Assembly (NCBI GenBank): GCA_037349105.1
Contig: JAYJMM010000124.1
Span: 2,340,001 to 2,404,000 of the forward strand
Source of the DNA: Limnomonas spitsbergensis
Lineage: Eukaryota > Chlorophyta > Chlorophyceae > Chlamydomonadales
Direction: 5' to 3'
Length of the DNA: 64,000 nucleotides
Positions 6,532 through 59,310 of the stretch are shown here, piece by piece. The translations under genes were made by a program, and so were the position numbers. The first letter of the stretch is position 1. Each line of letters starts with the position of its first letter. The notes under the pieces are model-generated. The model was not told the origin of the DNA and did no database searches. It saw only the letters and a program-made list of their open reading frames with translations.

Positions 6532-8154
6532 GTTCAGAAACAGTGTGTGACTTCAACTCAAGATTCTTGTCCCTAGTATGTTGTAATATAACTGTGTTAT
6601 TCCAGTCAGTCAATGTTATGAGTGCTGATGTTCAAGTCTGCAAATCTAGAACTGTCCTCAAAGCCACTCAAGCCAACTAATTGAAGATAAATTCGGGACT
6701 GAATACCGTATAAGCAAGGCCAATATTGATAATAGGCAAGTAGCCAAAACGCTCGACGGCGGGTGCGGAGCCGACTGCGGAGCTGAGCTGCACCTGCTTT
6801 GCGGCAGCAAAAAGCCCTTACCTTTTTCAGTCAGGCATTTTTACTCTTTCTGGCATTAATTATTATGGCCTCAATTATGGCCTCAGGCCATTTATGGCCC
6901 CCCAATAATCACTGGTGATGGTGCATCTCGTCATCTATCATAAGTTCATAACAGGTTTATTTAGGGCTGAGGAGGGGGGCGCACATCTTAAATGCACTTG
7001 TTCTATTTTTGAAGACGAGTCCCATTGTTTCCTTGGCACTCCATGGACGGCCAGGGGAACTGACATGAGGAACGGCTGCTGTGGCCAGTAGCCAAACATA
7101 ATTGCAGCCTTGCAGGGTCGTCTTGAAGATTATATTTGACACCCTTGCCTCCTTGGATCCCATGCATGCTATGAGTCGCATTGCTTCAGGCCTCGAGGCA
7201 GTACATCTGAAATTTGAAGTGCTGCTGCCGTGCTACCTGGGGCAGAATCAGGCGTTGCCTGCACCCCTGGCAGCCTTGGGTCAATGGAAGAGCTCATGGT
7301 TCTCAGCAGGTTCTCAGCAGGGCACTCAAAATTGACATATCTCCCCTGAGGCACATTGCCATCTTCAATTACAGGGGAGGCCGTCAGCTTGGGTCATGTT
7401 AAAGCATGCCAGGCACTCAGGCAGCTCTAGTTCCAGAAGGCACCTCCCTGCCTAGGACATCTCCAGGGCTACTGGGCAACAGTGATCTCATGCCTCCTCC
7501 TCACTGTTACAACGTGCGGTGAGGACAACGCTTGGTGGGTTTTGAGGCAACAAAGTCAGTGTAACAGAGCCGGCCTCCGGTTATCCACTTATCCGCCAGA
7601 AAAGCTCACCGTCCGCATACAACTATGGAAGAACAGCCTTCCGCTCTATGGTTTCCACAAGGTGTATCAGGCTTGCACAGGAGTTGTGCCCCACGCTGCA
7701 TGTCGGAGATTGAGGTAGATTCAAGAGTGGGAATCGGCACCCGTAAAGAAGCGGCTTAAGAGGGCTAGACACACAATCGGCAGGGGAAATGCGATGGCTA
7801 TGCTGTTGTAGCTACCCTGCTGCTACTGCTGATGTGTAGCTTCAACATGGGCGGGTTACCAGTTCGTATCATCCACGAAATTTGGCTTCCACCCTCCGGA
7901 TTCCACCTCGGTCCGGGTTTTCAGGGTTCCATGTCTCTGTCGATGCCGTGCTATTTTTGCGAGAATATTTGCGGACACGGAGGCTTCGTCTTTGATCGGC
8001 GTGAACACATGATCCCACCATCGCGTCATCATAATATAAATTGAATTTTCTGCTTGACATCGCAAAACAAATCTGAAGGAATGCAGAGTGTGAAGACGCT
8101 GTCAGCCGAGGATCTAGTGCGCAATGTGCAGTCGAAGCTGGTTAAATGTAAGCG

Positions 8155-11100
8155 ATGTCTATCGATTTGCTACCCACAGTGCATAGTTTGAACGAACCCT
8201 TCAAGCGGGCGGGAAAGAATCACACCCGGTATGTCCTCCTGTCGTGTGCAGCCGGCCTTGATGCGGGCAAATACCAACGGCAGTTGAAGGACATTGCTTC
8301 CTTGTTCGAGCCAGAGCGTTCAAGGGTGGAGCTTCTGACCGAAGGGCCTCGTGCTGGCGCCTGGGACATGGTGGGTGTGTTCGAAGCCGTTTTCAAACGG
8401 CGCATCCCTGTGCTGCCCGTTCGCCATTCCTTCACCATGCACGCATCAAAGTGCAGTATGCATGCATGGCATGCTCTCCGCTGACTCGATAATTTCGACA
8501 ACCTGCGTCGTCACCGCGTCGCGCAATGTCCTGACCGCGTGTTCCCCGCCCTGCCCCTCCTTCCCCCTCTTCAGTTCTGCTACTTCAAAGGTATTCGTCA
8601 CTGCTTCCACAGCGCCAGAGAGGTGCGCCCGCTTCACCGCTGTCCGCGACCCCCGGCGTCTCGCCGCTCTGATCCGAGGCTAGCCGCTAGCACGCACGGC
8701 TCTGATGCATGGCCATTTTCCAACACATGGTCATTCTGACGCACGGCCCATGGCCATGCAACACGCCCCCTGAAAATTCTGAGGAGGCCACTGTGAAGCT
8801 CTTCATGCACATCAGAATCCATTGCTTTCCGACATCTTGAAATTCTGAGAACTGCCCATGCTATGGCCCATGGCTGCTCAGGTGGCAGCCACGTTCGGCA
8901 TCCCCATCGTCAGGGATGCATCCAAACGCAAGAGGGAACAAGAACCAGATGAGGACGAGGAGGAGGAGGACGACAACGACGTAGGCCCTCACTCTGAGCC
9001 GCCCCCCGCACATCCGTACAACGGAGCAGACATGGGTGTCGGCGGTGGTGGCAGCTATGATGCTTACGATGACCTGCTGTCGCAGCACATGAAGATGCCC
9101 AAGTCTTCCGACGCGGCGAAAAAGAAGGCAGTGGCGGCGGCCCAGAAGAAGACAGGCCGCATGGGCAGCCGCTTCCAGAACCAAAAGCTGGTGAAGTCCA
9201 TCAATGTGAGAAGGCCACCCCGTGTATGAGTGCACCCTTCAACCTGATGCCCTCAAACCTTGCTCGTCATCCAAAACCCTAAGCTGCTTGAGTCCATCTA
9301 TGTGATGCCACCCCATCTATGCAATGATCGCAGGCCTGGCTGCAAGCAGGCTCTCCAGTATTTGTTTTCCCCTTTGTAAACGGCGCATGGCCGCATGCCT
9401 GGCTGCAAGCTGGCACTACGTTATTTTCCCTTGTTTTTGTTTCTTTGTAAGCAGCGCATGGCCGCATGCCTTTCTGCTTGGCTGTATGCCTTGCTGCAGG
9501 CTGGCGCCATTGCCAGCGACTTTCCCCCCTTCTTTCTAAACGGCGCATGGCCGCATGCCTGGCTGCATAGTCGCATGCCTTGCTGATTGCGGGGAGGATA
9601 CCTTGGAGGGCGAAGCCTCTGCCGGCAACGCAGGGGCTGCGGCCATGTCCTGTTCTTGAAGGTGCAGGGTGCACGTCGGCTGGCCTCAACTACTGTTGTC
9701 TCAAGATACAGTGCTGCCTCCTGTCTGTGTGATGGGCAGCCCTGGCATGGAGGTCCATTGTGGCAGCCTGGGTGGGAGCAATTGGGGGAAATAAATTTAA
9801 ATTTGAAGGCTTGAATTAAAACTAAATGTGTTGAAATACTACCACTGCCCTGCGCCGTGTAACACGCATGGAGATCAGTGCTGTGCAATTGCACTGTAAT
9901 TCAGAAATCATGCTAATATTTACGGTCCCTTAACTAGTAAAAGTAGCTGAGTTTGCCTTGAAATTTCGGTGGCTGAACCTCAGCTACGCAATTCAGCCAC
10001 CGCAAGGACCTTAATCGGCACAACACTGAAGGATATCCATTATGAGGACCTAGAGACCCCCCATCCTGAGCTTTAACCTCAACTGTAGAAAAAAAAAGAT
10101 GCAGGTTTGAAAGTCTGAAATACTGCCTCATACCTGTCTACAGAGCAACGTGGGCATGGAGGTCCATTGCGGGAACCTGCGCGCTCGTCTCGTGAGCTCG
10201 AACCTTGGAGGGATGACGTTCGAGCTGCTGGACGACTATGGGAAGGTGAGCGAGAAGCACGTGCCATGTGTAACTTACTGTATTGCGTAATTTGTGCCTG
10301 TGTTTAACATCTAATGTGTCTCAGTATCACCCTCATGAGCTCTACATTTTTGGATGGGACAACGTTTGAGATTGTTGATGACCATAAGAAGGTTCCTCCG
10401 CAGCCCCCCGGCCACATGTTTCCCGCCAGCCAGTTGGGTGAGTACCCCTGCCTGTAGCACCTCACCCTTTCACTCATTCCTCCATGCACAGGCAGCCCAC
10501 CGGCAATGTGGTGCCACCCAGCCAGTTGTGTGCGCGCCCTGCCTGTCGCACCTCACCCTTTCACTCATTCCTCCATGCACACGCAGCCCACCGGCGACAT
10601 GGTGCCGCCCAGCCAGCTGGCCAAGCGGTCCTGCCTTTCGCACCAGAACAACGCCTGGAAGTCCATCAAGGTGGACGGCATCACCTTGGATGCTTGGGTC
10701 TCGCGGCTGCAGGACGAGATCGAGGAGGACGACAGCGGAGTCGTGGGCAACAACGGCCACGCCATTGGCCACGATGGCGGCGGTGGCGGCGTGCTGGGCA
10801 TCGTGGGCGGCAGCGGGGGTGGCTTGTTGTTGGACGCCGGCGGCTATGCACCGCGATCTGCGGTAGACTTTCGAGGTGAGCATGTGTGACTGGGCCGATT
10901 AGGGGGGAAATCTGTAATTTCAGCAGCTTTGAAATGTCGATATGGGGTCGATTACAAAAGGCTGAAAACCTTGCTGGTCACTGGGATTGGGCGCGGGGCG
11001 CCACCGGCACCCTGTGCATATTTCAGCCTGTGCCAGTCTGCCTTTTGCCGGCGTTGTACCAGATGGTAGCTGAAGCTTAGCTGAAGTAGAACACACTGCT

Positions 11101-14100
11101 GGCATTCTCCCCCTGCCCGCGACAGCCGCCGCGCTGCGCTCTCATTTGGGGGGATGGATCCATTATGTCTTTTCTTGCATGTTGGCGGGAATCCGCTTTC
11201 CACAGAGGTCAGACTGCATGTGGCCCCTTCTACCAATGCTGTTGTTTTACGGGTTGGCAGGAGTGGGTTTTCTTGAGGTTCTTGAACAGTAGGCATGTTG
11301 CATGCCCCCCTCTCCCCCTGCCACCAATTCTTTGTCAAGGTCTCTGTGAGCGGAGATTAGAGGATCAAGAAGATACTGCCACGGCTGCCCATGGCTGCCC
11401 TTCATGATTTATTTTTCGTTAGCTTCTTGTGCATTATTAATTTTGAATGTTCTTCCCCCCTCATTCCGAATGTCCTCCCCTGCCACCCATCCTTGTGCAC
11501 AAGTCACTTCAAGATTCTTGTGCTTAAGTCATTTTGAATGGCCTCTCCTGCCACCAATTCTGTGTCAAGGTCTGCGTGCGCGAAGCTTAGAGGATCAAGA
11601 CGACACCGCTACTGCCGATGAGGATGATTACGATGATGGCATCGAGCCGCCGCTGGCTGGAGCATCATCAGGTGAGGGGAGAACGGGCCTCATAGCAGGC
11701 GCAGCGAAGGCTTTTTCGTGTTGGGGAATTAAGAATTCCAGGATATGCTAGTGTGTGAAGGTGTGGCCTCTTCGGCGACTCGTTGGCAGGAGCATTATGA
11801 GGTAATGGGGATTGGTGGCTTGGTCTTGGCTCAGTGGTGATTTTTTCGCCTGTGGGGAGAATTTAGCTTCAGGATCTATCAGTATGAAAGGTGTGGCCTT
11901 ATTGGATACCCGCCGGCAGGAGCTTGATCAGGTAATGGGGAAAGGGACCTTTTCCCTCAGTGTTTTTTATTTGGGGAATTCATTTCCAGGAGCCGTGAGT
12001 GTGCGCAAACATGTCGAAAATTGAATTCTTCGCTGGCAGCAGCATGATTTGGTGGCGAGGACAAGGAGCCTTTCACCCCTTATTTTCTTTCCGGTTACGA
12101 GTGCACCTTCTGCAGGCCGCAGATATCCTGCGGTACGCCCGATTGGGGCTCAGGGTAAACCTACAGAAACAGGCACAAGCAGCTTGGCTGGTCCTGATCG
12201 GGACCTCCGGCCGGAGGCCACGAAGTATCTGACATGCTGCTGAAATATCGCTGAAATGCATTTGAGCCACGGAAGCGTAGCCCTCGGGTGATGGGGAAAG
12301 GAGCGCCTCCCTTATCCTCCGCCCCACTTTGGTTGGTCACACATTCATGCAACCTACCTCTGCCCCTCCTCCTCCTCCTCCACTCAGCTTCCTACTCTGA
12401 TGCTTGGCCACTTCTTCACAAGCATTTCCGCAGATCTGAACATGAGCTTCCCGTGTAAAGCACATTATATACAATACTAGCACAGTACCGTATATACCAA
12501 CCAAACCTATATGAACCACGACCATATATTATATACCATGGGCATTTTATGCTATATACCATAATATGCACCATTTCCCTCATGTGTGCAGGCAAGGGCC
12601 TGAAACTCTTATCTGGCGCGGTGGACGATCTGAGGCTGCCAGGCGGCAGCATCAACGGCAGTGGGGACCGGCTCCAGAAGCAGAGTCTCAAGGTGGGTGG
12701 GGGGAAGGGGCCCAAGGGGCAGAGCAGAATTAGAAGGCACCTTCGTTTTCCGTGGATTAGACTCTACCTACTGCATGATCTAAACTGTCTGAAAACCTAC
12801 GCTTCGAAGGCACCCCGCTGGGACTGCAGGCCATGTAAACCTCTAGACTGGTCCACCAGCAGATGCAACAGGACAGCTCTCGCCTTAATTCTCTTCTTGC
12901 CCTCTGCACGCACCCTTAGCCCAATGGCCAGGGACACATTAAGGCTGGCCCACCAGCAGCTGCAGCAGGCGCACGTGGCCATCTTCACACCCTCTGGCGG
13001 CCCTTCGAAACCTGGACCCTCTGGTGGTTGTACCCTGAACCTGGTAACCTCCGGCATTAGACACCTGACGCTGTCGTTTTTTCCATCTCACCCTTCTTCT
13101 TGGATGAAATCCTCCAGATTGTTGAAACTTGAATACATCGCAGGCGCCCTCCGCCATCCTGGCCATTGATGCGTTTGCTCTGGTCTACAGCAGCAGCTGG
13201 AGCAGGCACAAGAGGCTATCTTCCCACTCCATGGAGGATGGATGAAACCCAAATGAGCGTTGAAACTTATATGCATCGCAGGCACCCTCCGCCATCCCGG
13301 CCGTCGACGCGTCCGCGCTAGTCCACCAGCAGCTGCAGCAGGCGCACGAGGCCATCCTCTCGCTCAGCGAGGAGAACCGACTGCTGCGCAGCAGCGAGGC
13401 GAGGAGGGAGTTATTAATCGTGCAGAAGGTGGGTGGGAGGGGAAGGTTTGGGTGGGGCAGGTCGGGTAAGGGTCAAGGAGAAGCGGCAGCTAGAGTGGCA
13501 GCAAGGCACAGATAAAGCAAGTACTGACGGAGGTGGTTGGAGGTCAGAACGGAGGGTAGGGGAGGGGAGGACGAACAAAGTTTATCTCGCTGGAGGAGGG
13601 CGGGACGGGGCGGGTCTGGGTCGGGGAGGGAGGGGAGGTCCTGGCCGGGGAGGAGAGGGGAGAGAATGTGAAGGGCAAGAGTTGAAAAGGTGCGATGAGC
13701 CGGGGCGGCTGTAGCGAGCTGTGCTGTGCAGCCTCGCTTGACGTGTCTCTGTTGAACAAATAGCATCAGTCTCTTATGTACGTGTGTGTTTTCTGTGTTG
13801 TTTTTAAGGAAACGCCATCACTCTCCCCTATTCGCGTACTTGCACATGCGCCTCCATTCCCTAACTGCATAAACAGATAACTACTGTACCGGTACTTGAT
13901 GGTTTTGTATTCATGTACCATTATCTGTCATTTATCCACACTCCGGTACTTGTAATATACTTGTGAATTTTCTCTCTTGTTTGTGTGTGCATGTGCAGAA
14001 CGAGGAGATCTCAGATTCTGCAAAGGGGTCCATCAACGCGCGGAGGGAGGCTAAGACTGATGCCATGGTGGCGGAGAGGGTCAGACAGCAACTGGTGAGA

Positions 14101-28320: not shown

Positions 28321-28372
28321 TGTCGCGGCCGAGCCTTTTTGAGCAGGGCCCAGAGGTGTAATGTCATTGACT
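28321..28372 (+). repeat. LINE 3'-terminal module
   Basis: 'GCGGCCGAGCCTTTTTGAGC' followed by 'agggcccagaggtgtaatgt' and 'cattgac', a near-perfect match to the copies at 5183 and 5427. No LINE body precedes it, so it is a very short truncated copy. Confidence 0.85.
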
Positions 28373-28390
28373 CACGGCTGTCACTGATTA

Positions 28391-31164: not shown

Positions 31165-33439
<2,275 letters not shown>

Positions 33440-34339
33440 ATTGGCCTAGGTACAGGGAAGCAAAGGTACCCGAGTGATGCGAAGCTTGCCTCTAATCCTG
33501 TCCGTGAGACACCAATCGTCATGTATGTACGGAGGTTCTGGAGCAGACGTGTGCGAAAGACAGCCACCTCTTCCAAAAACACTTTCAGCGTTATCCATCT
33601 GTCACAGCCATTACATTCCTTTTAACTTGTCTCCTTCAAGACGCAACATCAAAATTGACATTCCATCAGCTATGACCTTGCTCATGCCGTCGAAGTTGTC
33701 TCTTCAATGAAAACAGCATAATGCAGCACGCACTCATTCAAGGAAGACAGACTGCAGATTTACAGGAGCCATATGCAACATGGTCAGGCGCCCCAATGAG
33801 CATCCCAGTATCGCTGCATCAGTGCATGTTTTAACACGTCAACAAGAACGCAAACAAGGCCTGGGCATTCAGGTTCAAGCCAAACACAAGTCCGAATGCG
33901 GGCTGCATGGACATTCCTGTAGTAGCAAGCGTGCATGACTCTAGCGTCCGCCACTAACGCCACATAGGTTCCAGGTCTACTGGTACCATCATCACTGTTC
34001 ATGTAAGCGCGCTGCTGCTATCATAGCAAAATGTAATTCAGCTGCATCATGGCCTACGGCCGAGGGACCTGTTGCATTCAGCCCTGCTGCTTAGACCACC
34101 AGCCATCAGGCGTTTAAAATGTGGTGCCGGTGAGCCTCGTAGGCTGATCAGCGGAACTGTAGGTAATCTGTCGCTCTAAATAAACGCGGGGAAGCATAAA
34201 CTGTGCATGGACCAGGGAGCGTTTTTCAAGGAAGCTAAGCCATGCACCGTATCGCTGTATGAAAAAGCTTCTGGTAGCAAGTGTCCACCGCTTCGTCTGC
34301 GTAGATTCGTCTGTCTAGATCACCGGGTTCCATGTTCCT

Positions 34340-36990: not shown

Positions 36991-37246
36991 AACACAATTA
37001 TGGGACGAACCCCTGGTCCAAGGCACTTGCATGGCTGCATGCATGAGTCCTGAACGTCCCAAGACACAAACGCCGATCATGCATGCGAAGACCTCTTAAA
37101 GACGGGCCAGTCTGCCATTCCAGTATTTTGAACGTGCAATAATCATCTTGGTAAGCTTTACATGTTTCTTCTGCGCATTGTTTTCATTCAATTACATCAG
37201 CTGACGATGCAACTTCTCGTGCATCTGCGTCGCTACCGCGCGGGGC

Positions 37247-39458: not shown

Positions 39459-39490
<32 letters not shown>

Positions 39491-41616: not shown

Positions 41617-41620
41617 CTCG

Positions 41621-49100: not shown

Positions 49101-52100
49101 CGGTCATAGTGCACCTCGCCCTCCCGGCCGATCACGTGACAGGCGCTGCGTTGTTGCCCGGCAAACGTACGGCACCTCCTTCATCCCCGTACGGCACCCT
49201 CCTTCATCCACGTACGGCACCCTCCTTCATCCCCGTACGGCACCCTCCTTCATCCCCGTACGGCACCCTCCTTCATCCCCGTACGGCACCCTCCTTCATC
49301 CCCGTACGGCACCCTCCTTCATCCCCGTACGGCACCCTCCTTCATCCCCGTACGGCACCCTCCTTCATCCCCGTACGGCACCCCCCTTCATCCCCGTACG
49401 GCCCCCTCCTTCATCCCCGTACGGCCCCCTCCTTCATCCCCGTACGGCCCCCTCCTTCATCCCCGTACGGCACCCTCCTTCATCCCCGTACGGCACCCTC
49501 CTTCATCCCCGTACGGCACCCTCCTTCATCCCCGTACGGCACCCCCCTTCATCCCCGTACGGCACCCTCCTTCATCCCCGTACGGCACCCTCCTTCATCC
49601 ACGTACGGCACCCTCCTTCATCCCCGTACGGCACCCTCCTTCATCCCCGTACGGCACCCTCCTTCATCCCCGTACGGCCCCCTCCTTCATCCCCGTACGG
49701 CACCCTCCTTCATCCCCGTACGGCACCCTCCTTCATCCCCGTACGGCACCCTCCTTCATCCCCGTACGGCACCCCCCTTCATCCCCGTACGGCACCCTCC
49801 TTCATCCCCGTACGGCACCCTCCTTCATCCCCGTACGGCACCCTCCTTCATCCCCGTACGGCACCCTCCTTCATCCCCGTACGGCACCCTCCTTCATCCC
49901 CGTACGGCACCCTCCTTCATCCCCGTACGGCACCCCCCTTCATCCCCGTACGGCACCCTCCTTCATCCCCGTACCGCACCCTCCTTCATCCCCGTACGGC
50001 ACCCTCCTTCATCCCTGTACGGCACCCTCCTTCATCCCCGTACGGCACCCTCCTTCATCCCCGTACGGCACCCCCCTTCATCCCCGTACGGCACCCTCCT
50101 TTATCCCCGTACGGCACCCCCTTTCATCCCCGTACTGCACCCTTCTTTCCATCCCCCTGCGAACCTGTTTTTGGTTACGGGTTCAGGGTTCAGGGTTGAC
50201 AATCAGCTGGAGGCTAATGACACCCTCCCTCCCTCTAAAGCGCACCTCGCCCTCCCGGCCGGTCACGTGACAGGGCGGCACCGCGTTGTTGCCCGGGGTC
50301 TGCATGCAGACAACACGTTGGTGAGCGAGGCATGCTAAGCCAACGAGCTCCCTGCACTTAAGCGAGCAAAAGCCTATATACACAGTAGATTCGAATAGCC
50401 TTCTCTCAGATTGAACGCTGTTAGGGGTGAATCATTCACTCAAGTACTAGCTCCATATGGTCAAACCCAGGTTCAATTAAACATGCGTAGCAGCACGCTG
50501 CCGATCGTTCAGCTCATGGTCCCACCTGCAGCGCCCCATGCAGTTGCGTCCATGCGGAGCTTTGCTCCCTCGTGCGAGCCTCCAGGTCCACCTTGTCTGC
50601 CAGCAGCTGATGCCGCTCAGCCTCCAGGGAAGTCACCTGTCGCAGGAACCGTTTTGAATCTTGAAATTCGGAGGCTGATGGGTTCAAGTCCTTGCCCCAG
50701 GTCCACCTTGTCTGACAGCAGCAGATGCCGCTCAGCCTCCAGGGAAGTCACCTGGCACAGGCCAATCTATTGGAATTCGAAATTTGAATATTGCATGATT
50801 TCACCCTTCTTGCCATCTTGAGCTGACCCACATGCCACAGCTGACCCACAGCTTGAGCTGACCCCTTCCGAAGCCCTCCTGAGCCTCCTCGGCCTTGAGC
50901 TGCTCACCCTGGATCCGCCTTAGTCCTGGGTACAACCCCCTTCAAGATCCACCTTCGCCTTGACCTGGCCCCCTTCCGGAGCTCACTTGAGCCTTTCAAA
51001 GCCCCCTGTTTCGATCCCATCCTAGCCGCAGCCGGCCCTCACTCTGTAGCCTACTGAAGTCTCACGCTGCCACCATTCCCGAGTCCCAAATAAGCAACCC
51101 TCCGCAAGCCAAGCCTCGACTGCAGTGATTGCTCCCCCGGCCTGTCTTCACCTGGAGCTCCCTCATGCTGGTACCCACTTCCGCATCGAACCCTCCTTTT
51201 CCTTGAACCTTTCCTCATGTGGAAGCCCAGTCCTGACCTCTCTCCCTCTTTCTGGATCCCAGCCCACAAAGCCTGAGCACGCCGGACCGCATTGAGCCCC
51301 CCACCTTTGCCTTGAGCTGCCCATTCTGCAGCCCCACATCGGCCGCCCTCCGGACCTCCTGTTTAAGCTGCATGTGCTGCTCCACCAGTGCCTCCTGCTG
51401 CCTAGACACGCGGCTCATAGCAATGACCAAGCCCTGCGTGCAGCGGCAGCAGTCAGCATGGGGCAGAACTCGTGAGTAGATGAAGGAGCAGACACAGCAC
51501 CTCCGGCGACAACAACAGTTTGCTTTAGGGCTCGGAAAGTAGAGAAAATAGCGGTAGATTTTCGGTAGATTTTACTTCAAGGGCATTGGGTTGAGTTGTT
51601 TTAAGATTTCGATTTTAGTTGCTTGTGCGGCTCCACCAGCCAACTCCTGCTGCCTTGAAACCCGGCTTTGGTAGCGATGATCGAACCGTGCGTGCAGCAG
51701 CAGCTGAGCAGCAGGACAGTAGGGTTGAGGGTTCACACTCTTTTATTTCGGCGGCATGTGCTGCTCCACCAGCACCTCTGGACGCTCTAAAATCCGGCTC
51801 ATAGCAATGACCCAGCCCTACTTGCAGCAGCAGAGCAGTTGGCTTGAGGATTAAAAGGTGTACATTCTAGCAATGCTTGAGGTACCGGTACCGTAGATAT
51901 GAATTGCCTTCCCTGGATGTGAGTGAATGATATCTTGAAAGCTGGCCTCAGGGCAAGCAATTGAAAAAAGCTCTCCGTTTCCGACTGAAACTGGCGTTGA
52001 CAAGGATGCATGTTTCTTAATGAATCCCTCACCCCTTCAATTCTTTCCCTTTCACTTCCCCCCCCTTCACTTCAGGTACTTTGAATCCACCGTTAGTCGA

Positions 52101-55100
52101 GGATTCTCATTTCAAGTACGTCCAGGATTATAAGTTAAGGTCTCTGTCAGGTTCAAGGTGGCAGTGTCTTTTCAGTAGGATAGGGTATTTAGGGTCAACC
52201 AAACGAACAACAGACAGCCAAGTTCGGCTTGGTTAAGTTAAGGTACGGCACAGCAGGCGTCCAATGCGTGACCGGTAAAGGCAACGATTTTAATATCTTA
52301 TAATATCGTTGCGGTCACGCGTCACCCGGCTGCTTTTCACGCCCACCTGTGCTCCCGGCGCCGCGGCAAGAGCTGGCTGCTCGTGCCTCCTTGAGGACGG
52401 GCCTGCCGCCGCCGCCGCCGTCGCCCTGCTGGGTGAGCCAGCCCGCTTCTTTCCCCCCGCAGCAGGTGCGGTGGCGGCACCAGGGGCGCCGCTGGGCGCG
52501 GCGGCAGTGGGCGCAGCCATGGCTGCTGTGATGCGGTGCGTGAGGCCGTCCACGCGGGAGTTGAGATCCACCTGCCGCTCAAACATTCAAACATGCTTGG
52601 GACACAAATTCAAATACCCTTCAGGTATTGCTGGCCGCTGTGGCAGTTGGCGCGGCCATGGTTGCTGTGACGTGTTGCAGGTCAAACTGAAGCATATCTA
52701 AATTGCCACTGAAAGTAGCACCGACCAAAACACACCTGTTGAGCGCGGTTCAGGTCCTACACGTCCATCACCTGATATCCTAACCATGTAAACCTGAAGC
52801 ATACCTAACCTGCCGCTGAAAGAAGCACCGACCAAAACACACCTGTTGAGCGCGGTTGAGATTCTGGAGGGAGCCTGGAGGGGCTCCTTCCCGTCTGGGG
52901 CCCCAATTGCGCTCTCCACACGTGATATCCTACCCGGGTCAACCTGAAGCATACCCAAACTGCCGCTGAAAGGTAGCTCCGACCAGAACGCAACTGTTGA
53001 GCGCGATTGAGGTCCAATACACCCTTAACCCAAAACGCACCTGTTGAGCGCGGTTGAGATTCAATACACCCTTAACCCTAAACGCACCTGTTGAGCGCGG
53101 TTGAGATCCAGCACACCCTTCATTTGGTCCTGCATGCCAGCCAGCTCCACTTCCAGCACGGCGTACTGCCTGTGTATGGCCGCCACTTGCTCGTCCTGAT
53201 GTACACGCTCACGGCTCATTTCAGAGCAGGTACCCTAGGTGTACACGGTGGTCGGTGGTGGTTTAAGGTGAAGGGTTTACACCCTAAGCCCTGGGTGTCA
53301 ACGGTGGTCGGTGGTGGTTCAGGGTTCAGGGGTGAGACCCTCAACCCTGGGTGTGCACGGTGGTGGTTCAGGGTTCAGGGGTGAGACCCTCAACCCTGGG
53401 TGTGCACGGTGGTGGTTCAGGGTTCAGGGGTGAGACCCTCAACCCTGGGTGTGCAAGGTGGTGGTTCAGGGTTCAGGGGTTAGACCATCAACCCTGGTGT
53501 GCACGGTGGTGGTTCAAGGTTCAGGGGTTAGACCATCAACCCCGGTGTGCACGGTGGTGGTTCAGGGTTCAGGGGTGAGACCCCAAGCCCTGGGTGTGCA
53601 CGGTGGTGGTTCAGGGTCAGGGGTTAGACCCTCAACCCTGGGTGTGCACGGTGGTGGTTCAGGGTTCAGGGGTTAGACCCTAAGCCCTGGGTGTGCAAGG
53701 TGGTGGTTCAGGGTTCAGGGGTTAGACCCTAAGCCCTGGGTGTGCAAGGTGGTGGTTCAGGGTTCAGGGGTTAGACCCTCAACCCTGGGTGTGCACGGTG
53801 GTGGTTCAGGGTTCAGGGGTTAGACCCTCAACCCTGGGTGTGCACGGTGGTGGTTCAGGGTTCAGGGGTTAGACCCTCAACCCTGGGTGTGCACGGTGGT
53901 GGTTCAGGGTCCAGGGGTTAGACCCTCAACCCTGGGTGTGCAAGGTGGTGGTTCAGGGTTCAGGGGTTAGACCCTCAACCCTGGGTGTGCACGGTGGTGG
54001 TTCAGGGTTCAGGGGTTAGACCGTCAACCCTGGGTGTGCACGGTGGTGGTTCATGTGATGCTGTGACTGCTTGTGTTGCTTTTGCTGTGACGACTTGTGC
54101 CTGTTTTTGTTACATAGTTAACGCAACTGCCCAGGGGGCAGACAATGTGAAACCGGAGTAAAACCAACAAAATAATGTGAAACACGTTACTACTACAATA
54201 GTGTATTTAAGAGGGGGGGGGGGGGGCTTTTTTATAATATCAATAATGTGCGTGTGTGTTTGTACATATGAATGTTTCTTTTTGTTCAACCCACCCCGTA
54301 CACCGTCTGCACGCCTCAGAGTCTGCCGAGCTGCTTCCCCACCCAACCTCCCACCGTCTGCGTGCCTCACAGCCTGCAGAACTTCCCCACCCATCCTCCC
54401 ACCGTCTGCGTGCCTCACAGCCTGCAGAACTTCCCCACCCATCCTCCCACCGTCTGCGTGCCTCACAGCCTGCAGAACTTCCCCACCCATCCTCCCACCG
54501 TCTTCGTGCCTCACAGCCTGCAGAACTTCCCCACCCATCCTCATCCTCCCCCACCCATCATCCCACCGTCTGCCTGTTGAGTTGCGCCTCTAAGACCTCT
54601 GTCTGCGTTTTGGATGCTTGAAGGACCTGCAACTGCTCCTGTGTGGCAAGACACAGGTTCAGGGTAAGGGTTCAGTACAAGTTTAAACCATCCAAGACCT
54701 GCAACTGCTCCTGTGTAGTTAGGGTTCAGGGTTAGAGTTCAGGATGAGCTTAACGCTTCCATGACCTGCAACTGCTAATGTGTGACTTGGCGAGGATCTG
54801 CAGCTTCAGATGTGTGGTGTGGCGAGGTGGGAGCACAGAGAGCGGGGGAGGGTCAGGTTTGAAGGGATTGAAGGCTAAGAAATTGGAGGGCGGCAGGAAA
54901 TGGTGGGGAGAATAAGGTGTGACGGTGGTAAGGGTTGAGAAAGCAGGGGGCAACGGGCAAAGGATTATGGTTTAGGGTGCAGGGTTAAGGGTTCGGGTTA
55001 AGGTGTGACGGTGGTAAGGGTTGAGGAAGCAGGGCGCAGCGGGCAAAGGCGCTCCCCTTGCCTTCCTCCCTCAAGCATTGAGGGGGAAAGGGTGACGAAG

Positions 55101-58100
55101 CAGAAGGAATAGGTAGGCTTCAGATAGAAAACCTGCCTCCCTCCTTAGCACCCAACTGCTGCAACTTTGCCCATTCAGCTGACAGGAGGGTGCCGAGCTG
55201 CCTGGTTTAGGGTTCAGTGTTTATGAAAAGAATGAAAGGCTCCTCCTCCGCCGAAGCAGGAGGCCAGAGAACGGCTCGACCCACAGCAGCTCTATTGAAG
55301 TTGGTAGGATAGCCCGCTCACGACATTCTGCGGGGCACATTTAACGAAGGGCCAGACGTTTCCCCGCTTACACCTGGAACACGGTGAATGAACCTTGGCA
55401 GGATGCGAACCGCAGACCTCAAGGTGGACTGCCAATCAGCGTAGTACCACTGAGCCCACCGGGGATATCTCTCAGGGTTTATGGAGGGACTCCTTGTCTC
55501 CCCCGCTCCCCCACACCTTCAACAGCTGCTCCAGTTCTGCCCGCTTGGCGTCCTGCGAGGTGCCGCGCAGCCTAGCCTCATCCCTCGCAACCGAGAGCTC
55601 GTCAATGATGGCTTGGTCCCGCTCCTTGTGACGCCTTAGATCCTGTTGGGAGGAGAGGGGAGGGGGTAGGTGAGGTATGGTCCTGCTCCTTGTGACGCCT
55701 TAGATCCTGTTGGGGAGGGAGGGGAGGGGGTATGTGAGGTATGGTCCTGCTCCTTGTGACGCCTTAGATCCTGTTGGGGAGAGAGGGGAGGGGGTATGTG
55801 AGGTATAGTCCTGCTCCTTGTGACGCCTCAGATCCTGTTGGGAGGAGAGGGGAGGGGTTATGTGAGGTATGGTCCCGCTCCTTGTGACGCCTTAGATCCT
55901 GTTGGGGAGAGAGGGGAGGGGGTAGGTGAGGTATGGTCCTGCTCCTTGTGACGCCTTAGATCCTGTTGGGGAGAGGGGAGGGGTTATGTGAGGTATGGTC
56001 CTGCTCCTTGTGACGCCTTAGATCCTGTTGGGGAGAGGGGAGGGGTTATGTGAGGTATGGTCCTGCTCCTTGTGACGCCTTAGATCCTGTTGGGAGGAGA
56101 GGGGAGGGGTTAGGTGACGTACGGTCCTGCTCCTTGTGACGCCTTAGATCCTGTTGGGGAGAGAGGGGGGAGGGGGTAGGTGAGGTATGGACTTCCAGTG
56201 CTGGTAGCGGTCACGCGTCACGTTCCTTGTGGCGCTTAATATTCTTCTCACAATGTTTCCGCATCCTCCCGTCGCCTATTCCGAAAGGTCCAGGTTAAAA
56301 GTTTGAGGATTAATGGGAGAGGGGGGGGCTGAGGGGAGGATCACTGGGAGGGGGGCGCGGAGGAGAGGATCACTGGGAGGGGGGCGCGGAGGAGAGGATC
56401 ACTGGGAGGGGGGCGCGGAGGAGAGGATCACTGGGAGGGGGGCGCGGAGGAGAGAATCACTGGGAGGGGGGGCTGAGGGGAGGATCACTGGGAGGGGGGC
56501 GCGGAGGAGACGATCACTGGGAGGGGGGCGCGGAGGAGAGGATCACTGGGAGGGGGGCGCGGAGGAGAGGATCACTGGGAGGGGGGGCTGAGGGGAGGAT
56601 CACTGGGAGGGGGGGCTGAGGGGAGGATCACTGGGAGGGGGGCGCGGAGGAGAGGATCGCTGGGAGGGGGGGGTGGAGGTGAGAATCACTGGGAGGGGGG
56701 TTGAGGGGAGGATCCCTGGGAGGGGGGGCACGGAGGAGAGGATCACTGGCAAGGCTTCAAGGTCAGGGGTGGGAGACGGGTCAGGGGGGCAAACTTTAGC
56801 AAAGTCCAGCAGAGATACAGAAAGGGGGACCCTGTCCATCTCTAAAACAGTACAAGAGGAGGTCGACCCACCTCGACATAGTCCAGCAGCGTGCCCTTGT
56901 CATCCTCTGCCCTCTTGAGTGTCACCTCAGCCTCTTCACACCTGTTCATACCAGTGGGGCGCAGACAGGGGGGCAGGGCTCAGATATGGAGTGTCAAATC
57001 GGCCTCCACACATGTGCACACGAGTGGAGCCCAGGCAGTGGTTCAGGGCTCAGATCCTGAGTGAAAATTTGGCCTCTTCACACTTGATAAAACCAGTGAA
57101 GATCAGGTAGGGGTGCATGGTTAAGAGCTTGGGTGCAAAACTGGCCCCGGAAGCCCTGCTTGCCTCTTCACACCTGTTCACACTTGTGTGGGGCGGGCAG
57201 GCCTTCAGGGCCCAGAGCTTGGCCATGCCCTTCCGGCCATCCCCAACTGACATCAACCCCTTAAATTGGGACTTGCTTCAATTGCAACCTTGCGGTGAAC
57301 TAGTTGGATAATTCCCACGATAAAGTAAAAGACGTTGCCCGGCGCCGCATAGTCACAAATCTCTCTATCTGTTTGATGCTGGATTGTTGGGGTTCGATTC
57401 GGAACCATGAGCATCTGCTGCCACCTTCTTGTTGGTGGGCAGATTCATGCTTCGTTTCACCGCAACCTTTTCGAGTTATATTTCACACACACCAACACTG
57501 CCCAAGTCTCTTGAAGTCATTCCGATAGGATCAAGGATTCAGGCTTGACCATCCCCCCCCATTCGAGCCAGACAACCATCTTCAAGATTCATCTCACCAA
57601 ACCCTACCCCTCCCTGCACACCCCGGTTGCAGCCTCTTCTATTCATCCCGACAGGATTCAAACTTTCAGCTGCCCTTCACTTTTACCTTGCGCCTCCTGC
57701 TTCGGCGGAGAAGTGGTCTTTCTTTCTTTCTTTCTTTCACATTTTCCACCCTTTCCCTGCACCACTTCTTTTCCTCCCCGCACCTCCCTTTTCACCCCAC
57801 ACTCCTCGGTTGCAGCCTCTTCTATTCATTGCGACAGGGTTTAGGGTGAAGGCCTTTGGGGTTAACCCTTCACACTCTTTCCATCCCTCACCTCTGCTGC
57901 AGCCTCTTGTAGTCATTCCGATAAACATCAAAGTCCAGCAGGTTGCTTGCTTGCCGTTTGAGCTGGTCTTCCCGCTCCTCTAGGCCCTCATTCAGCTGAG
58001 CGACCTAATGGAGGGCAAGGGTTGGGGGTTGAGGTGCAGGGGGCACAGGTCAGGGTTAAGCAGGTTGCTTGCGTGTCGTTTGAGCTGGTCGTCCCGCTCT

Positions 58101-59297
58101 TCAAGGCCCTTCAGCTGACCGACCTGATGAGGGACGAGGGTCAGGCTTCAGAATTTGGTGGACAAGGGTGATAGGGTTTAAGGGATGAGGAGATTAAGCC
58201 CAGGCCGTGGGCCAAGGTAGAAAATATGGATGTGGCCTGCGCGGTCCTGTCCGCTGTGCTGCTCCCTTGGCTCTCTCGCCTTCCTAGGGGAGAAAACTAC
58301 TTTCTTTGCCTCACTACTTCAGATACGAATGCAAACATCAAAATGGAGGGAAAGAAGATTTCCTTCCGTCTTCATGGCAACCAAATATAAAAAGATCTCG
58401 CCAGGAGTAAAGATTTAGCTGACTCTCAGATGATCCGGCGGTTCAGATCTGGCCGGATCCCTTGCTTGAGGGCGCATAAGCCGGAGGCACTCACCATAAT
58501 GTGCATGTATGGGCTTCTGTCACTCACTTACACTCCTTTTGAGATACGTTTCCTGTCTGGCCCGGCCAATTCTCATCTTAGCAAACACAACAACACCCAC
58601 AGGCATGTTTGTGCAGCAACAGCTGCAGCAAAACATAACTCAAAATGCTGCTTCGTGTCCTACAGCTCTTCCAGCAAAAGCCTGCTAAGCAGACCTACGC
58701 TGCAGACACACTGCAACGACTGCCGTCAAAAAACACCCCCTCACCCCAACTCCTGCTTTCCTTCGTAAAATTCCTTCAGCATCTGCCGGCTTCTTGGCAC
58801 TGCAACAACTGCAACAAGCCATCCACTCCACCTGCTGCCTCACGTCGAACAGCTAATCCAACAGCTAGGCACCTTCTAGACAAGCCCAGGCTCCGGGCGG
58901 ACTGCAACAAACGCAACAACTGCAACACCCACAGGTAGAAACCAAGACAGTTTTATCTTTCCCACCTGCTGCCTTAGACTGCATAGCTCCAGTAGCTGTC
59001 TGCTTGACGGGCCACAATCTATGCAACAACCATGGTCACAACAACCCCAACAAGCTCTATTCCAACCTGCTGCCGCAGGTCGACCAGCTCCTCCAGAAGC
59101 TGCCTGCTAGGCAAGCCCGCTAGCACTGCAACAAGTATAGTCACGCAAACTCCAACAAGCCACATTCACACCTGCTGCCTCAGGTCGTACAGCTCCTCCA
59201 GAAGCTGCCTGCTAGGCAAGCCCAGGCTGCGAGCAGATTGATCCACTAGGGCATGCTGGCGTTGCAGGTCCTCTTGGAGCTGCAAGATCTCCTTGTC
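43163..59297 (-). CDS. Giant coiled-coil protein, 3' fourteen exons (844 aa seen)
   Basis: Exons (minus): 59297-59172, 58004-57892, 56941-56872, 55642-55517, 54638-54567, 53195-53088, 52571-52347, 51433-51305, 50636-50526, 50299-50246 (weaker), 48156-48014, 47237-47126, 44952-44854, 44209-43163. All phases fit, including two phase-2 introns. The first ~495 residues are almost continuous heptad-like coiled coil ('LQLQEDLQRQHALVDQSAR', 'VAQLNEGLEEREDQLKRQ', 'DLRRHKERDQAIIDELSVA'), interrupted by an Ala/Pro-rich loop in exon 52571-52347. The 348-residue terminal exon is disordered: Pro/Ser-rich with acidic SSSEEEDS and SSSDEEYDD clusters, a basic KKRAG/KQRRSS character and a final short helix. 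No known family is recognised; structural, centrosomal or motor-adaptor roles are possible. More exons must lie upstream, beyond the 33-bp array at 59311-63085. Confidence 0.8.
44480..44680. repeat. 38-bp tandem repeat, ~5 copies
   Basis: Unit 'agtgggtcttgccaggaacc' 'ctacaccctaaagtagat' in the last intron of the coiled-coil gene; the unit includes a telomere-like CCCTAAA. Confidence 0.9.
45000..45350 (-). repeat. Four copies of the acceptor edge of exon 44952-44854
   Basis: 'ttgagctcctgtaactccct' then 'ttgctgctgatcctgcggcg' (true) recurs at ~94-100-bp spacing with 'cgatgtaaacaaatgtgc' between copies. Each retains the splice-site position 'gatc|ctgcggcg' or a near match. Confidence 0.88.
45462..45600. 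mobile_element. MITE-family fragment
   Basis: 'taccgtagatttgatttgcc' followed by 'ttccctcgggtatcaatt' matches the ends of the elements at 39255 and 51885. The duplicated 'ttaatgctgccctc' is peculiar to this copy. Confidence 0.5.
45902..46194 (-). pseudogene. Internally deleted hAT-family transposase
   Basis: An N-terminal frame (46194-46078, starting MAPKKVKRSILLDNGK) ends at a TGA. A second frame (46090-45902) reads 'ATERNWSAWGRTYTGSRSRL' and 'ARAEKLIYVKAN', the conserved C-terminal hAT dimerisation signature (compare ERNWS...RNRL...RAEKLVY). Everything between, including the catalytic DDE region, is missing, so this is a non-autonomous deletion derivative lodged in an intron. Terminal inverted repeats were not resolved. 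Confidence 0.75.
46328..46394. other. 16-bp AT-rich inverted repeat
   Basis: TATATAAAGTATATAT at 46328-46343 is perfectly inverted at 46379-46394, 35 bp apart. Confidence 0.8.
46741..46842. mobile_element. MITE-family fragment
   Basis: From 'cccctcaccccaaataatga' to 'gagggaaggctaaccgaatc' 'tacggta', the inverted form of the family terminus. Confidence 0.5.
47330..47650 (-). repeat. Three copies of the acceptor edge of exon 47237-47126
   Basis: True edge 'aaaagtcagaggccgggggc' 'agtgctgatatggcggccctgcga'. Copies: 'aaagtcagcggccaggggca...tggtggcccagcgg', 'aaagttagcggcagggtggc...ctggcggcctggagg' and 'aaaagccatagtccgggggc...catgccggccctgca'. Confidence 0.82.
48693..48780 (+). repeat. Interspersed repeat shared with the 14.5-kb block
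   Basis: 'tggcgcggatgtggcttcgg' and 'actctcaagcccctcacggg' parallel 14505-14590 in another gene's intron. Confidence 0.6.
49109..50160. repeat. 24-bp minisatellite, ~41 copies, flanked by exon-edge copies
   Basis: Unit 'cgtacggcaccctccttcat' 'cccc' at 49166-50150. To its left, 49109-49160 ('cacctcgccctcccggccga' 'tcacgtgacagg') copies the exon 50299-50246 donor edge found to its right. Long open frames arise because 24 is divisible by three. Confidence 0.92.
50370..50452. mobile_element. MITE-family fragment
   Basis: 'cacagtagattcgaatagcc' 'ttctctcagattgaacg' resembles the terminus of the elements at 39255 and 51885; low-similarity copy. Confidence 0.4.
50690..50765 (-). repeat. Copy of the acceptor half of exon 50636-50526
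   Basis: 'aggtccaccttgtctgacag' 'cagcagatgccgctcagcct' 'ccagggaagtcacctg' is almost identical to the true exon text at 50581-50638. Confidence 0.88.
50825..51290. other. Intron with faint copies of the exon 51433-51305 donor edge
   Basis: 'ccttgagctgctcaccctg', 'ccttgacctggcccccttcc' and 'cttgagctgaccccttccg' echo the true 'cacctttgccttgagctgcc'. Diverged; less certain than other arrays. Confidence 0.45.
51625..51835 (-). repeat. Two copies of the acceptor edge of exon 51433-51305
   Basis: 'gctccaccagccaactcctg...ccggctttggtagcgatgat' and 'gctgctccaccagcacctct...atccggctcatagcaatgac' parallel 'gctgctccaccagtgcctcc...gcggctcatagcaatgacc'. All end near '.tgcagcagc'. Confidence 0.82.
51885..52040. 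mobile_element. MITE-like element, second long copy
   Basis: Inverted relative of 39255-39450: 'taccgtagatatgaattgcc' 'ttccctgg' at one end, 'tttccgactgaaactgg' inside and 'aatgaatccctcacccc' at the other. Confidence 0.62.
52730..53063 (-). repeat. Four copies of the donor edge of exon 53195-53088
   Basis: The true junction '(c)gcac|ctgttgagcgcggttgagat' at 53088 is followed inside the intron by copies near 52736, 52842, 52993 and 53039. All keep CTGTTGAGCGCG, and three are preceded by a usable '.cac'. Confidence 0.88.
53226..54050. repeat. ~49-bp minisatellite, ~17 copies
   Basis: Unit 'gggtgtgcacggtggtggtt' 'cagggttcaggggttagacc' 'ctcaaccct' in the intron between exons 54567 and 53195. 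Confidence 0.93.
54300..54566 (-). repeat. 48-bp array seeded by the donor of exon 54638-54567
   Basis: Five units of 'tcccaccgtctgcgtgcctc' 'acagcctgcagaacttcccc' 'acccatcc'. Each repeats the true junction 'tcccac|cgtctgc', that is ACG|GTGGGA on the coding strand. Confidence 0.87.
54690..54815 (-). repeat. Three copies of the acceptor edge of exon 54638-54567
   Basis: 'gacctgcaactgctcctgtgtggc' (true) recurs as 'gacctgcaactgctcctgtg' (54695), 'gacctgcaactgctaatgtg' (54763) and 'gatctgcagcttcagatgtg' (54793). Confidence 0.88.
55393..55464 (-). other. Degenerate tRNA-like sequence
   Basis: On the minus strand an A-box-like GGGCTCAGTGGT is followed ~40 bases later by a B-box-like GGTTCGCATCC. 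The T-stem and acceptor stem do not pair, so this is a tRNA pseudogene or a tRNA-derived SINE head, not a working tRNA. Confidence 0.4.
55660..56190 (-). repeat. ~65-bp array of the 3' splice site of exon 55642-55517, eight copies
   Basis: Each unit repeats 'ctccttgtgacgccttagat|c-ctgttggg', the first ~21 coding bases plus the CAACAG acceptor, followed by a G/A-rich spacer. The true junction at 55642 is the innermost member. Confidence 0.93.
56310..56760. repeat. ~29-30-bp minisatellite, ~15 copies
   Basis: Unit 'gatcactgggaggggggcgc' 'ggaggagag', with a 'ggctgagggga' variant. Confidence 0.93.
56990..57190 (-). repeat. Three copies of the acceptor edge of exon 56941-56872
   Basis: 'cctcagcctcttcacacctg' 'ttcatacc' (true) recurs as 'atcggcctccacacatgtgc', 'ttggcctcttcacacttgat' and 'cttgcctcttcacacctgtt'. 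The following 'agtggagcccaggcag' text also repeats. Confidence 0.83.
57500..57845 (-). repeat. Three copies of the donor edge of exon 58004-57892
   Basis: 'ctgcagcctcttgtagtcat' 'tccgataaacatc' (true) recurs as 'cttgaagtcattccgatagg', 'gttgcagcctcttctattca...cccgacaggatt' and 'gttgcagcctcttctattca...gcgacaggg'. Confidence 0.82.
58055..58130 (-). repeat. Copy of the acceptor edge of exon 58004-57892
   Basis: 'agcaggttgcttgcgtgtcg' 'tttgagctggtcgtcccgct' and 'cagctgaccgacctgatg' copy the exon's first ~80 bases and its splice site. This exon thus has copies on both sides. Confidence 0.88.
58640..59125 (-). repeat. Copies of the donor edge of exon 59297-59172
   Basis: 'cacctgctgcctcaggtcgt' 'acagctcctccagaagctgc' (true) recurs clearly at 59060-59120 and 58965-59020, and faintly further left, with 'caacaa.tgcaaca' spacers. 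Confidence 0.82.
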
Positions 59298-59310
59298 CTA
59301 AGAGATTCAC

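What the first reader, a model, noticed from the sequence alone, without database searches (positions are those of the whole stretch)
8081..59300. Exon-intron junctions are systematically copied in tandem into the adjacent introns
In four separate genes on both strands (SAND-like, MT-A70, EAF6-like, giant coiled-coil), about 20 exon edges have diverged tandem copies of themselves in the flanking intron. Each copy holds the first or last ~15-60 coding bases together with the splice site. Copies always lie on the intron side, tend to be more diverged with distance, and affect donors and acceptors alike. This suggests that long introns here grew by repeated duplication across splice junctions, leaving strings of decoy splice sites and partial exons. 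It differs from introner insertion (no shared sequence between genes) and from ordinary satellites (each array is unique to its own junction). I know of no named class for this.
Basis: seen in the sequence. Interest (0 to 1): 0.92.

Follow-up and report, generated by a model that had tools for sequence, protein, structure and literature searches.

The report
Tandem duplications copy exon edges into introns
In this green alga, introns are full of short local tandem duplications, and many of them happen to start inside a neighbouring exon, so nearly half of the tested exon ends have worn copies of themselves, splice site included, lying in the intron beside them.

Summary
Of 48 testable exon edges here, 23 have an intronic copy spanning exon end and splice site; in kinesin genes elsewhere in the genome it is 31 of 72. 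Shuffled introns give 0-3 of 120. Copies are in direct orientation only (51 of 174 direct, 0 of 174 inverted) and near their own edge (0 of 58 at the far end of long introns).

The claim that junctions are special is not supported. Exon interiors are almost never copied. A mild junction excess (up to about 1.7-fold) is not excluded.

Best explanation: locus-specific, minisatellite-like tandem duplication pervades long introns (35% of bases in arrays; shuffled 2%). Where a duplicated segment straddles a junction, selection holds the exon copy and the spare decays in the intron. Introns lengthen and carry decoy splice sites, mostly intact. The assembly matches the published snow alga Limnomonas spitsbergensis, which has full-length transcripts, so decoy use is directly testable.

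The parts
9270..9321 (+). Gene A: copy of the donor edge at 9205 (32 exonic bases plus GT)
   Evidence: identity 0.81
9714..9770 (+). Gene A: copy of the acceptor edge at 10144 (36 exonic bases), AG changed to TG
   Evidence: identity 0.74
10399..10528 (+). Gene A: two upstream copies (10399-10437, 10446-10528) of the acceptor and first 33-34 bases of the exon starting at 10587; 91-bp unit
   Evidence: identity 0.82 and 0.92, AG kept in both
11291..11393 (+). Gene A: copy of the acceptor edge at 11570 (51 exonic bases)
   Evidence: identity 0.84, AG kept
11781..12071 (+). Gene A: three copies of the donor edge at 11671 (21-22 exonic bases), about 120-130 bp apart
   Evidence: identities 0.67, 0.76, 0.75, GT kept in all three; the exon-only test did not pass here (excess 4.3)
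12798..13205 (+). Gene A: three copies of the acceptor edge at 13282 (60 exonic bases, the cap)
   Evidence: identities 0.69, 0.77, 0.80
13562..13640 (+). Gene A: weak copy of the donor edge at 13428 (33 exonic bases), GT changed to GA
   Evidence: identity 0.73; not passed (excess -1.2)
14210..14270 (+). Gene A: weak copy of the donor edge at 14094, mostly intronic (9 exonic bases)
   Evidence: identity 0.74; not passed (excess -1.2)
21411..21823 (-). MT-A70 gene: four copies of the acceptor edge at 21357 (28-55 exonic bases)
   Evidence: identities 0.80, 0.75, 0.70, 0.77 going outward; AG kept in 3 of 4
23443..23512 (-). MT-A70 gene: copy of the donor edge at 23594 (54 exonic bases)
   Evidence: identity 0.75, GT kept
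45010..45362 (-). Coiled-coil gene: four copies of the acceptor edge at 44952 (46 exonic bases), 96-bp unit
   Evidence: identities 0.80-0.88, AG kept in 3 of 4
47745..47826 (-). Coiled-coil gene: weak copy of the donor edge at 48014 (37 exonic bases), GT changed to GC
   Evidence: identity 0.68; excess 5.3
50694..50803 (-). Coiled-coil gene: copy of the acceptor edge at 50636 (59 exonic bases)
   Evidence: identity 0.85, AG kept
50884..51104 (-). Coiled-coil gene: three weak copies of the donor edge at 51305 (29-60 exonic bases)
   Evidence: identities 0.69, 0.74, 0.76; not passed (excess 4.4)
51625..51849 (-). Coiled-coil gene: two copies of the acceptor edge at 51433 (60 exonic bases, the cap)
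   Evidence: identities 0.81, 0.80; AG kept in 1 of 2
52725..52862 (-). Coiled-coil gene: two copies of the donor edge at 53088 (20 and 35 exonic bases)
   Evidence: identities 0.94, 0.80, GT kept
54334..54460 (-). Coiled-coil gene: copies of the donor edge at 54567, mostly intronic (10 exonic bases), in the 48-bp array
   Evidence: identities 0.97, 0.87; not passed (excess -0.7)
54696..54784 (-). Coiled-coil gene: two copies of the acceptor edge at 54638 (15 and 23 exonic bases)
   Evidence: identities 0.84, 0.83; AG kept in 1 of 2
55693..56190 (-). Coiled-coil gene: near-identical 64-bp array (9 units, 55614-56190) whose unit holds the acceptor and first bases of the exon starting at 55642
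   Evidence: eight matched pieces, identities 0.92-0.98, AG kept in all eight
56992..57216 (-). Coiled-coil gene: three copies of the acceptor edge at 56941 (12-26 exonic bases)
   Evidence: identities 0.80, 0.71, 0.78, AG kept in 1 of 3; not passed (excess 3.7)
57481..57834 (-). Coiled-coil gene: three copies of the donor edge at 57892 (30-48 exonic bases)
   Evidence: identities 0.79, 0.74, 0.75; GT kept in 2 of 3
58067..58141 (-). Coiled-coil gene: copy of the acceptor edge at 58004 (60 exonic bases, the cap)
   Evidence: identity 0.85, AG kept
58623..59118 (-). Coiled-coil gene: five copies of the donor edge at 59172 (42-60 exonic bases)
   Evidence: identities 0.85, 0.76, 0.88, 0.72, 0.72 going outward; GT kept in 3 of 5
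31175..32846 (-). GAPDH gene with short introns (135-312 bp) and no exon-edge copies: internal negative case
   Evidence: 0 of 6 edges; TRF coverage 0.027 over 31175-33500

Best explanation
Long introns of this alga are built in large part of locus-specific, head-to-tail tandem duplications (minisatellite-like) that arise, multiply and decay locally. The duplicated segment can begin or end anywhere. When it lies wholly in a coding exon it is removed by selection. When it straddles a splice junction the original exon edge still works, so the event is tolerated: the extra copy, carrying about 10-100 exonic bases plus the splice site, sits in the intron and mutates while the exon copy is held constant. 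Repetition leaves strings of partial exons with decoy splice sites and lengthens the intron. Shown: the copies, their orientation, closeness and junction span, equal copying of intron interiors, near absence of copying from exon interiors, and an association with intron length. Inferred: slippage or unequal exchange as the duplication mechanism, selection as the filter on exons, and that the spliceosome normally uses the edge joined to the full exon.
For: Direct copies at 51 of 174 edges, inverted at 0 of 174, at the far end of introns of 900 bp or more 0 of 58. Exon edges and intron pseudo-junctions alike: 49 of 148 and 570 of 1726. Intron blocks are copied no less away from the junction: 0.42 and 0.44 in the first two 100-bp bins, 0.50-0.63 from 200 to 700 bp; bins beyond 1100 bp hold 6-9 blocks each (0.25, 0.56, 0). 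Exon segments 60 and 90 bases inward: 2 of 69 and 0 of 52 above excess 5. TRF: 18,920 of 53,902 intron bases in arrays; of 126 arrays touching introns 103 are internal and 23 straddle an exon edge, exonic reach 13-96 bases; the introns alone give 17,234 bases and block-shuffled introns 1,109 and 1,202. Intron length goes with local-copy coverage in 37 kinesin introns (Spearman 0.66, p 7e-6; not corrected for the larger target of long introns). Paralogues L033/L038: homologous introns of 541 and 1126 bp have 281 and 301 non-repeat bases, and the six-copy acceptor array of L038 (identity 0.87-0.96) is absent from L033 although 90 flanking exon bases are 90% identical. Neutral simulations gave edge-to-intron ratios of 0.67-1.04, those rejecting 75-80% of junction-spanning duplications 0.20-0.40; observed 1.00 pooled, 1.30 paired.
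Against: Paired per intron, edges are somewhat ahead of interior points (0.329 and 0.254, difference interval -0.012 to 0.164; ratio 1.30, interval 0.96-1.73). In one search doubling the junction rate gave 1.04 pooled and 1.27 paired, nearer to the observed 1.00 and 1.30 than the neutral run (0.67 and 0.87); the chance of a paired ratio of 1.30 or more under neutrality was 0.006 and 0.094 in two parameter sets. A modest junction excess may therefore exist. Donor GT is kept more often than flanking dinucleotides (difference 0.157, interval 0.006-0.293, 27 edges; acceptors 0.081, interval -0.041 to 0.196), which plain decay does not predict. Arrays do not explain all length differences: in six intron pairs of paralogues L025/L027 and L023/L026 non-repeat content also differs widely (for example 68 and 1585 bases), and in the other L033/L038 pair it falls from 339 to 145. 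In 13 of 20 other 10-kb segments the local-copy rate is only 0.03-0.14, so duplication is not uniform along the genome. The duplication mechanism was not observed.
Confidence: 0.82

Rival explanations
1. Junction-targeted duplication: something tied to splicing or transcription (R-loops, lariat-linked breaks) duplicates DNA preferentially across exon-intron borders, and intron-internal arrays are mostly later growth.
For: Paired per-intron edge rate slightly above intron points (ratio 1.30, interval 0.96-1.73); a doubled junction rate fitted the ratios better than neutrality; TRF coverage of introns (0.35) is above the median of 20 other 10-kb segments (about 0.15).
Against: Pooled rates identical (49 of 148 and 570 of 1726); intron blocks away from junctions are copied as often as near ones; terminal exon bases lie in TRF arrays less often than intron bases; high-scoring copies are, if anything, fewer at edges (14 of 148 and 322 of 1726; paired difference interval includes zero).
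Confidence: 0.1
2. Functional decoys: copies are kept because their splice sites regulate splicing or serve as alternative exon extensions.
For: Decoy donor GT retained above flanks (0.77 and 0.62 per edge); donor sites in copies of 95% identity or more are all intact (10 of 10; acceptors 6 of 7).
Against: Frame offsets of 107 decoys with intact sites are spread 31/35/41; acceptors show no significant retention; arrays mostly differ between paralogues; copies lack the other exon end.
Confidence: 0.06
3. Mobile introner-like or other transposable insertions.
For: Long introns in a genome with transposons (PMC11228838, section 18).
Against: Exon-end queries match other genes' introns in only 1.5% of 1508 comparisons above z 5; copies only in direct orientation and next to their source.
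Confidence: 0.01
4. RNA-mediated reinsertion of mRNA or intron lariats.
For: Copies hold transcribed sequence.
Against: Of 148 exon-bearing copies 142 carry exon joined to intron as in the genome, which spliced mRNA would not give; strict closeness and tandem periods fit DNA duplication better than insertion of unspliced RNA.
Confidence: 0.02
5. Assembly artefact.
For: Arrays are hard to assemble, and copy numbers in near-identical arrays may be wrong.
Against: 125 of 142 copies are below 95% identity to their source, and the kinesin copies lie on eight contigs; the matching published assembly is from long PacBio reads polished with Illumina reads (PMC11228838, passages).
Confidence: 0.01

Closest known systems
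Intronic minisatellites / VNTRs
   Same: Head-to-tail direct repeats with a locus-specific unit.
   Different: Here they fill about a third of intron sequence in the genes tested and often begin inside the exon, so one unit is kept under coding selection and the others carry splice sites.
[quoted passage not shown] part 1 of 5 read: abstract, introduction, start of methods)
   Same: A tandem duplication crossing an intron-exon boundary, with splice signals inherited from the parent junction.
   Different: That is one event that made a new intron; here existing introns seem to lengthen, at 54 of 120 tested edges and often repeatedly.
Tandem exon duplication (recalled)
   Same: Local tandem copying of exon sequence.
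   Different: Copies are partial (exonic reach 13-96 bases in TRF arrays) and centred on one splice site.
Introner elements (recalled)
   Same: Change intron content across many genes.
   Different: No shared sequence between genes, and no insertion away from the source.
Long introns of core-Reinhardtinia algae (PMC8226300; passages read)
   Same: Other algae of the same order with conspicuously long introns, driven by a mechanism the authors leave open.
   Different: I had no sequence of those species to test; local tandem duplication is offered only as a candidate.

Membership tests
Minisatellite / tandem repeat array | Head-to-tail direct repeats of a unit longer than about 10 bp | tested here: met
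   TRF arrays (35% of bases; shuffled about 2%); direct 51 and inverted 0 of 174 edges. The TRF set also holds some shorter units (5% point of periods: 7)
Minisatellite / tandem repeat array | Unit specific to its locus | tested here: met
   1.5% of 1508 comparisons with other genes' introns above z 5, against 24 of 74 own edges; tested among kinesin genes only
Minisatellite / tandem repeat array | Copy-number polymorphism among individuals | not testable with these tools
   only one assembly held; differences between paralogues seen
Intron gain by tandem duplication | Duplicated segment crosses or contains splice signals | tested here: met
   142 of 148 exon-bearing copies cross the junction
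Intron gain by tandem duplication | A new intron is created | not testable with these tools
   no transcripts or close outgroup; several kinesins share intron positions (for example LLQ|DSLGG), so lengthening is the simpler reading
Introner elements | Shared sequence family across genes | tested here: not met
Introner elements | Target-site duplications or terminal repeats | not tested
   no search made
Tandem (whole) exon duplication | Complete exon with both splice sites copied | tested here: not met
   edge arrays reach 13-96 exonic bases; queries were capped at 60 exonic bases
   a mild excess is not excluded (paired interval 0.96-1.73)

The most novel reading that the evidence does not exclude
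Exon-intron junctions are a mildly favoured source (roughly 1.5-2 fold over chance) of tandem duplication in this lineage, because duplication is linked to transcription or splicing and the selected exon edge acts as a permanent seed that keeps sending fresh copies into the intron; the intact decoy sites form a standing pool for alternative splicing and new exons.
Probability: 0.15. Interest if true: 0.82.

Novelty: new variant of a known kind. Interest (0 to 1): 0.58.

Why it matters
It shows in one genome how introns can lengthen without transposons: by local tandem duplication that ignores splice junctions. Of 120 tested exon edges 47 face at least one copy of their own splice site with the dinucleotide intact, in places eight or more copies, so the genome is a natural experiment on how the spliceosome picks the right site. 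It also offers a concrete hypothesis for the long introns of chlamydomonadalean algae, and a warning for gene finders: mine called decoy copies as micro-exons.

Tried and rejected
Rejected: junction-specific targeting as the main account, introners, mRNA reinsertion, whole-exon duplication, selective disabling of decoy sites (GT and AG are kept at least as well as flanking dinucleotides), in-frame exon extension (frame counts 31/35/41).

Led nowhere: Pfam on ten window ORFs named MT-A70 (E 1.6e-4, 22.1 bits, below the curated 23.9) and GAPDH; the other eight had no match above a cut-off. Pfam on ten ORFs outside the window found a zinc knuckle and CNNM only. The junction-bias settings repeated the same duplicated segment instead of adding new events, so their x2, x3 and x4 rows are not tests of junction bias; only varied it properly. 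Myosin genes were located but their DNA was not obtained; the dynein search did not complete. The genic against non-genic contrast within the window is not clean: my first table began one non-genic stretch at 26200 and so left out the satellite at 24262-26124; the full tiling gives 0.22-0.40 for gene A and the coiled-coil gene depending on whether the big satellites count, and 0.10-0.83 for stretches outside modelled genes, so I draw nothing from it. Nine literature searches showed no title or abstract describing pervasive junction-spanning duplication; they cover only open-access PMC text, the terms used and the rows listed.

Rows dropped or changed before counts: 4 of 41 solved kinesin junctions were dropped as doubtful; two of their edges (L028 donor 3826, L030 acceptor 4144) came back with other partners among 30 gene-finder introns added. 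One L036 intron used is probably two introns, and was split. The 32-bp window intron at 8148-8179 is probably a model error. Introns under 150 bp were left out, introns under 320 bp out of the comparison. I looked for copies of exon edges only inside the adjacent intron and, as a control, other genes' introns. My note says 14 of 20 segments at or below 0.14; one search shows 13 of 20.
Full report
WHAT WAS CHECKED. The finding says that exon edges in four genes of the window are copied, with their splice sites, into the adjacent introns. The window lies in a 260,226,709-base assembly of 124 contigs. One of its contigs is 10,736,355 bases long. The Limnomonas spitsbergensis assembly is described as 260,248,090 bp in 124 contigs with a longest contig of 10.736 Mb and 54.15% GC (PMC11228838, passages), so I take the organism to be that Arctic snow alga; this is an inference from assembly statistics.

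GENE MODELS. A family search for kinesin motors listed 139 exon matches across the genome (a lower bound, as only the best candidates are scored). I fetched 18 kinesin loci, solved 41 junctions by frame, splice motif and profile position and kept 37. A small gene finder trained on these exons gave models for the window and for missing kinesin exons. All models rest on homology, coding statistics and splice motifs; no transcripts were available.

In the window 18 of 54 exon edges have a significant copy in their own intron; in the kinesin set 24 of 74 exceed z 5, against 1.5% of 1508 comparisons with other genes' introns. With a junction-crossing criterion the numbers are 23 of 48 and 31 of 72 edges, 142 copies in all, against 2, 0 and 3 of 120 in shuffled introns. 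Some examples can be read by eye: in kinesin L038 the real exon start (GHIPYRDSKLT) is preceded by six 82-bp units, each with its own acceptor and a near-identical exon start. In the window, the acceptor at 55642 has a 64-bp, nine-unit array. The EAF6-like gene did not show it, and GAPDH has none at 6 edges.

THE CONTROL THAT DECIDES. If junctions were special, points inside introns should be copied less often. They are not: 49 of 148 exon edges and 570 of 1726 intron pseudo-junctions exceed the threshold. Paired by intron the ratio is 1.30 with interval 0.96-1.73; the pooled interval is 0.70-1.40. Intron blocks away from junctions are copied at least as often as near ones up to about 1 kb. 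Independently, TRF places 35% of intron bases in arrays (block-shuffled introns about 2%); the terminal exon base lies in an array in 0.245 (donor) and 0.208 (acceptor) of 53 introns of 320 bp or more, against a mean of 0.325 for intron bases. Exon interiors are nearly free of copies: 60 bases in, 2 of 69; 90 bases in, 0 of 52. So the junction copies are the exon-side ends of a process that pervades introns.

WHAT KIND OF PROCESS. Copies are direct only (51 of 174, inverted 0 of 174) and close to their source (0 of 58 at the far end of introns of 900 bp or more), in arrays with regular periods: tandem duplication of DNA. They carry exon joined to intron (142 of 148), so spliced mRNA is not the source. 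The nearest copy is more like the exon than the farthest at 23 of 33 edges. Intron length rises with local-copy coverage (37 kinesin introns, Spearman 0.66; long introns also offer more target, which I did not correct for).

PARALOGUES. Eight homologous intron pairs were compared. In L033/L038 one pair measures 541 and 1126 bp with about the same non-repeat content (281 and 301 bases), and the L038 acceptor array is absent from L033; in their other pair (534 and 1075 bp) repeat-covered bases rise from 195 to 930 while non-repeat bases fall from 339 to 145. In the six pairs of L025/L027 and L023/L026 almost no intron block still aligns (one block in one pair), and non-repeat content differs widely (for example 68 and 1585 bases), so arrays account for part, not all, of the length differences, and turnover is fast.

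SELECTION. Simulations with duplications placed anywhere, exonic ones rejected and substitutions only in the intron gave edge-to-intron ratios of 0.67 to 1.04; rejecting 75-80% of junction-spanning duplications gave 0.20-0.40, far from the data, and rejecting half gave 0.44-0.76, a poor fit. Junction-spanning duplications therefore seem to be tolerated about as freely as intron-internal ones. Against a purely neutral account, the doubled junction rate (1.04 pooled, 1.27 paired) lies nearer to the observed 1.00 and 1.30 than the neutral run of that call (0.67 and 0.87). The simulations are toy models whose parameters I chose by hand. High-scoring copies are fewer at edges than in introns (14 of 148 and 322 of 1726), but the paired interval includes no difference.

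DECOY SITES. The splice dinucleotide is intact in 107 of 142 copies, and 47 of 54 edges have at least one intact copy. It is kept at least as often as neighbouring dinucleotides (donor 0.77 and 0.62, interval of the difference 0.006-0.293; acceptor 0.70 and 0.62, interval includes zero; 27 edges each); the junction tends to lie inside the alignment, which may favour it. There is no sign of selective disabling. Frame offsets of the 107 intact decoys are 31/35/41, so there is no sign that copies serve as in-frame exon extensions. Which sites are used cannot be told without transcripts.

WHERE IT OCCURS. Twenty 10-kb segments beside the window and around a second GAPDH match on contig 28 have TRF coverage of 0.05-0.63, median about 0.15, and in 13 of 20 the local-copy rate is 0.03-0.14, against 0.35 TRF coverage in the introns. 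Whether introns are truly favoured over other non-transposon DNA is open: the quiet segments may be transposon-rich, and within the window large satellites outside genes blur the contrast.

COMPARISON WITH THE LITERATURE. A tandem duplication across an intron-exon boundary that made a new intron in potato is the nearest printed case I found (PMC4974935, part 1 of 5 read). The L. spitsbergensis paper reports a mean intron length of 788 bp and treats genome size through transposons (sections 18 and 20 and passages read); in what I read it does not discuss intron arrays. Related algae are described as having long introns whose driving mechanism is left open (PMC8226300, passages). Nine literature searches (listed under Tried and rejected) did not turn up this pattern as a genome-wide feature.

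VERDICT. Real, widespread, and best read as pervasive intronic tandem duplication that does not respect splice junctions; not a junction-specific class, though a mild junction excess remains possible.

Noticed in passing
64 introns (window genes and kinesin loci): Telomere-like heptamers (rotations of TTTAGGG, both strands) occur at 7.45 per kb in introns against 0.58 in mononucleotide-shuffled introns; 0 to 8.4 per kb in 20 other segments.
   Followed up: partly
L009/L008 (C124:2328166-2339637): A single 3824-aa open frame just upstream of the window; the scanned 3212-aa part has only a CCHC zinc knuckle in Pfam; probably a transposable-element polyprotein.
   Followed up: partly
window 59312-63074, 15792-17533, 24786-26124, 49166-50156: Large homogeneous satellites (33, 78, 45 and 23-bp units; 114, 22, 30 and 43 copies), some open in several frames and easily mistaken for coding sequence.
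   Followed up: no
window 1178-1410 and 2049-2281: A 233-bp exact direct repeat, possibly LTR-like.
   Followed up: no
L025, donor edge 2511 (reverse-oriented locus): A GC donor in a kinesin with eight downstream copies (identity 0.95-1.00); which copy is spliced is unclear.
   Followed up: partly
L002 (C28:4485652-4486028): A second GAPDH-like match, 88% identical in DNA to the window's GAPDH exon.
   Followed up: no
L038, 4069-4561: My gene finder calls five of the decoy copies as 24-base micro-exons, so annotations of this genome may hold spurious micro-exons at such arrays.
   Followed up: partly
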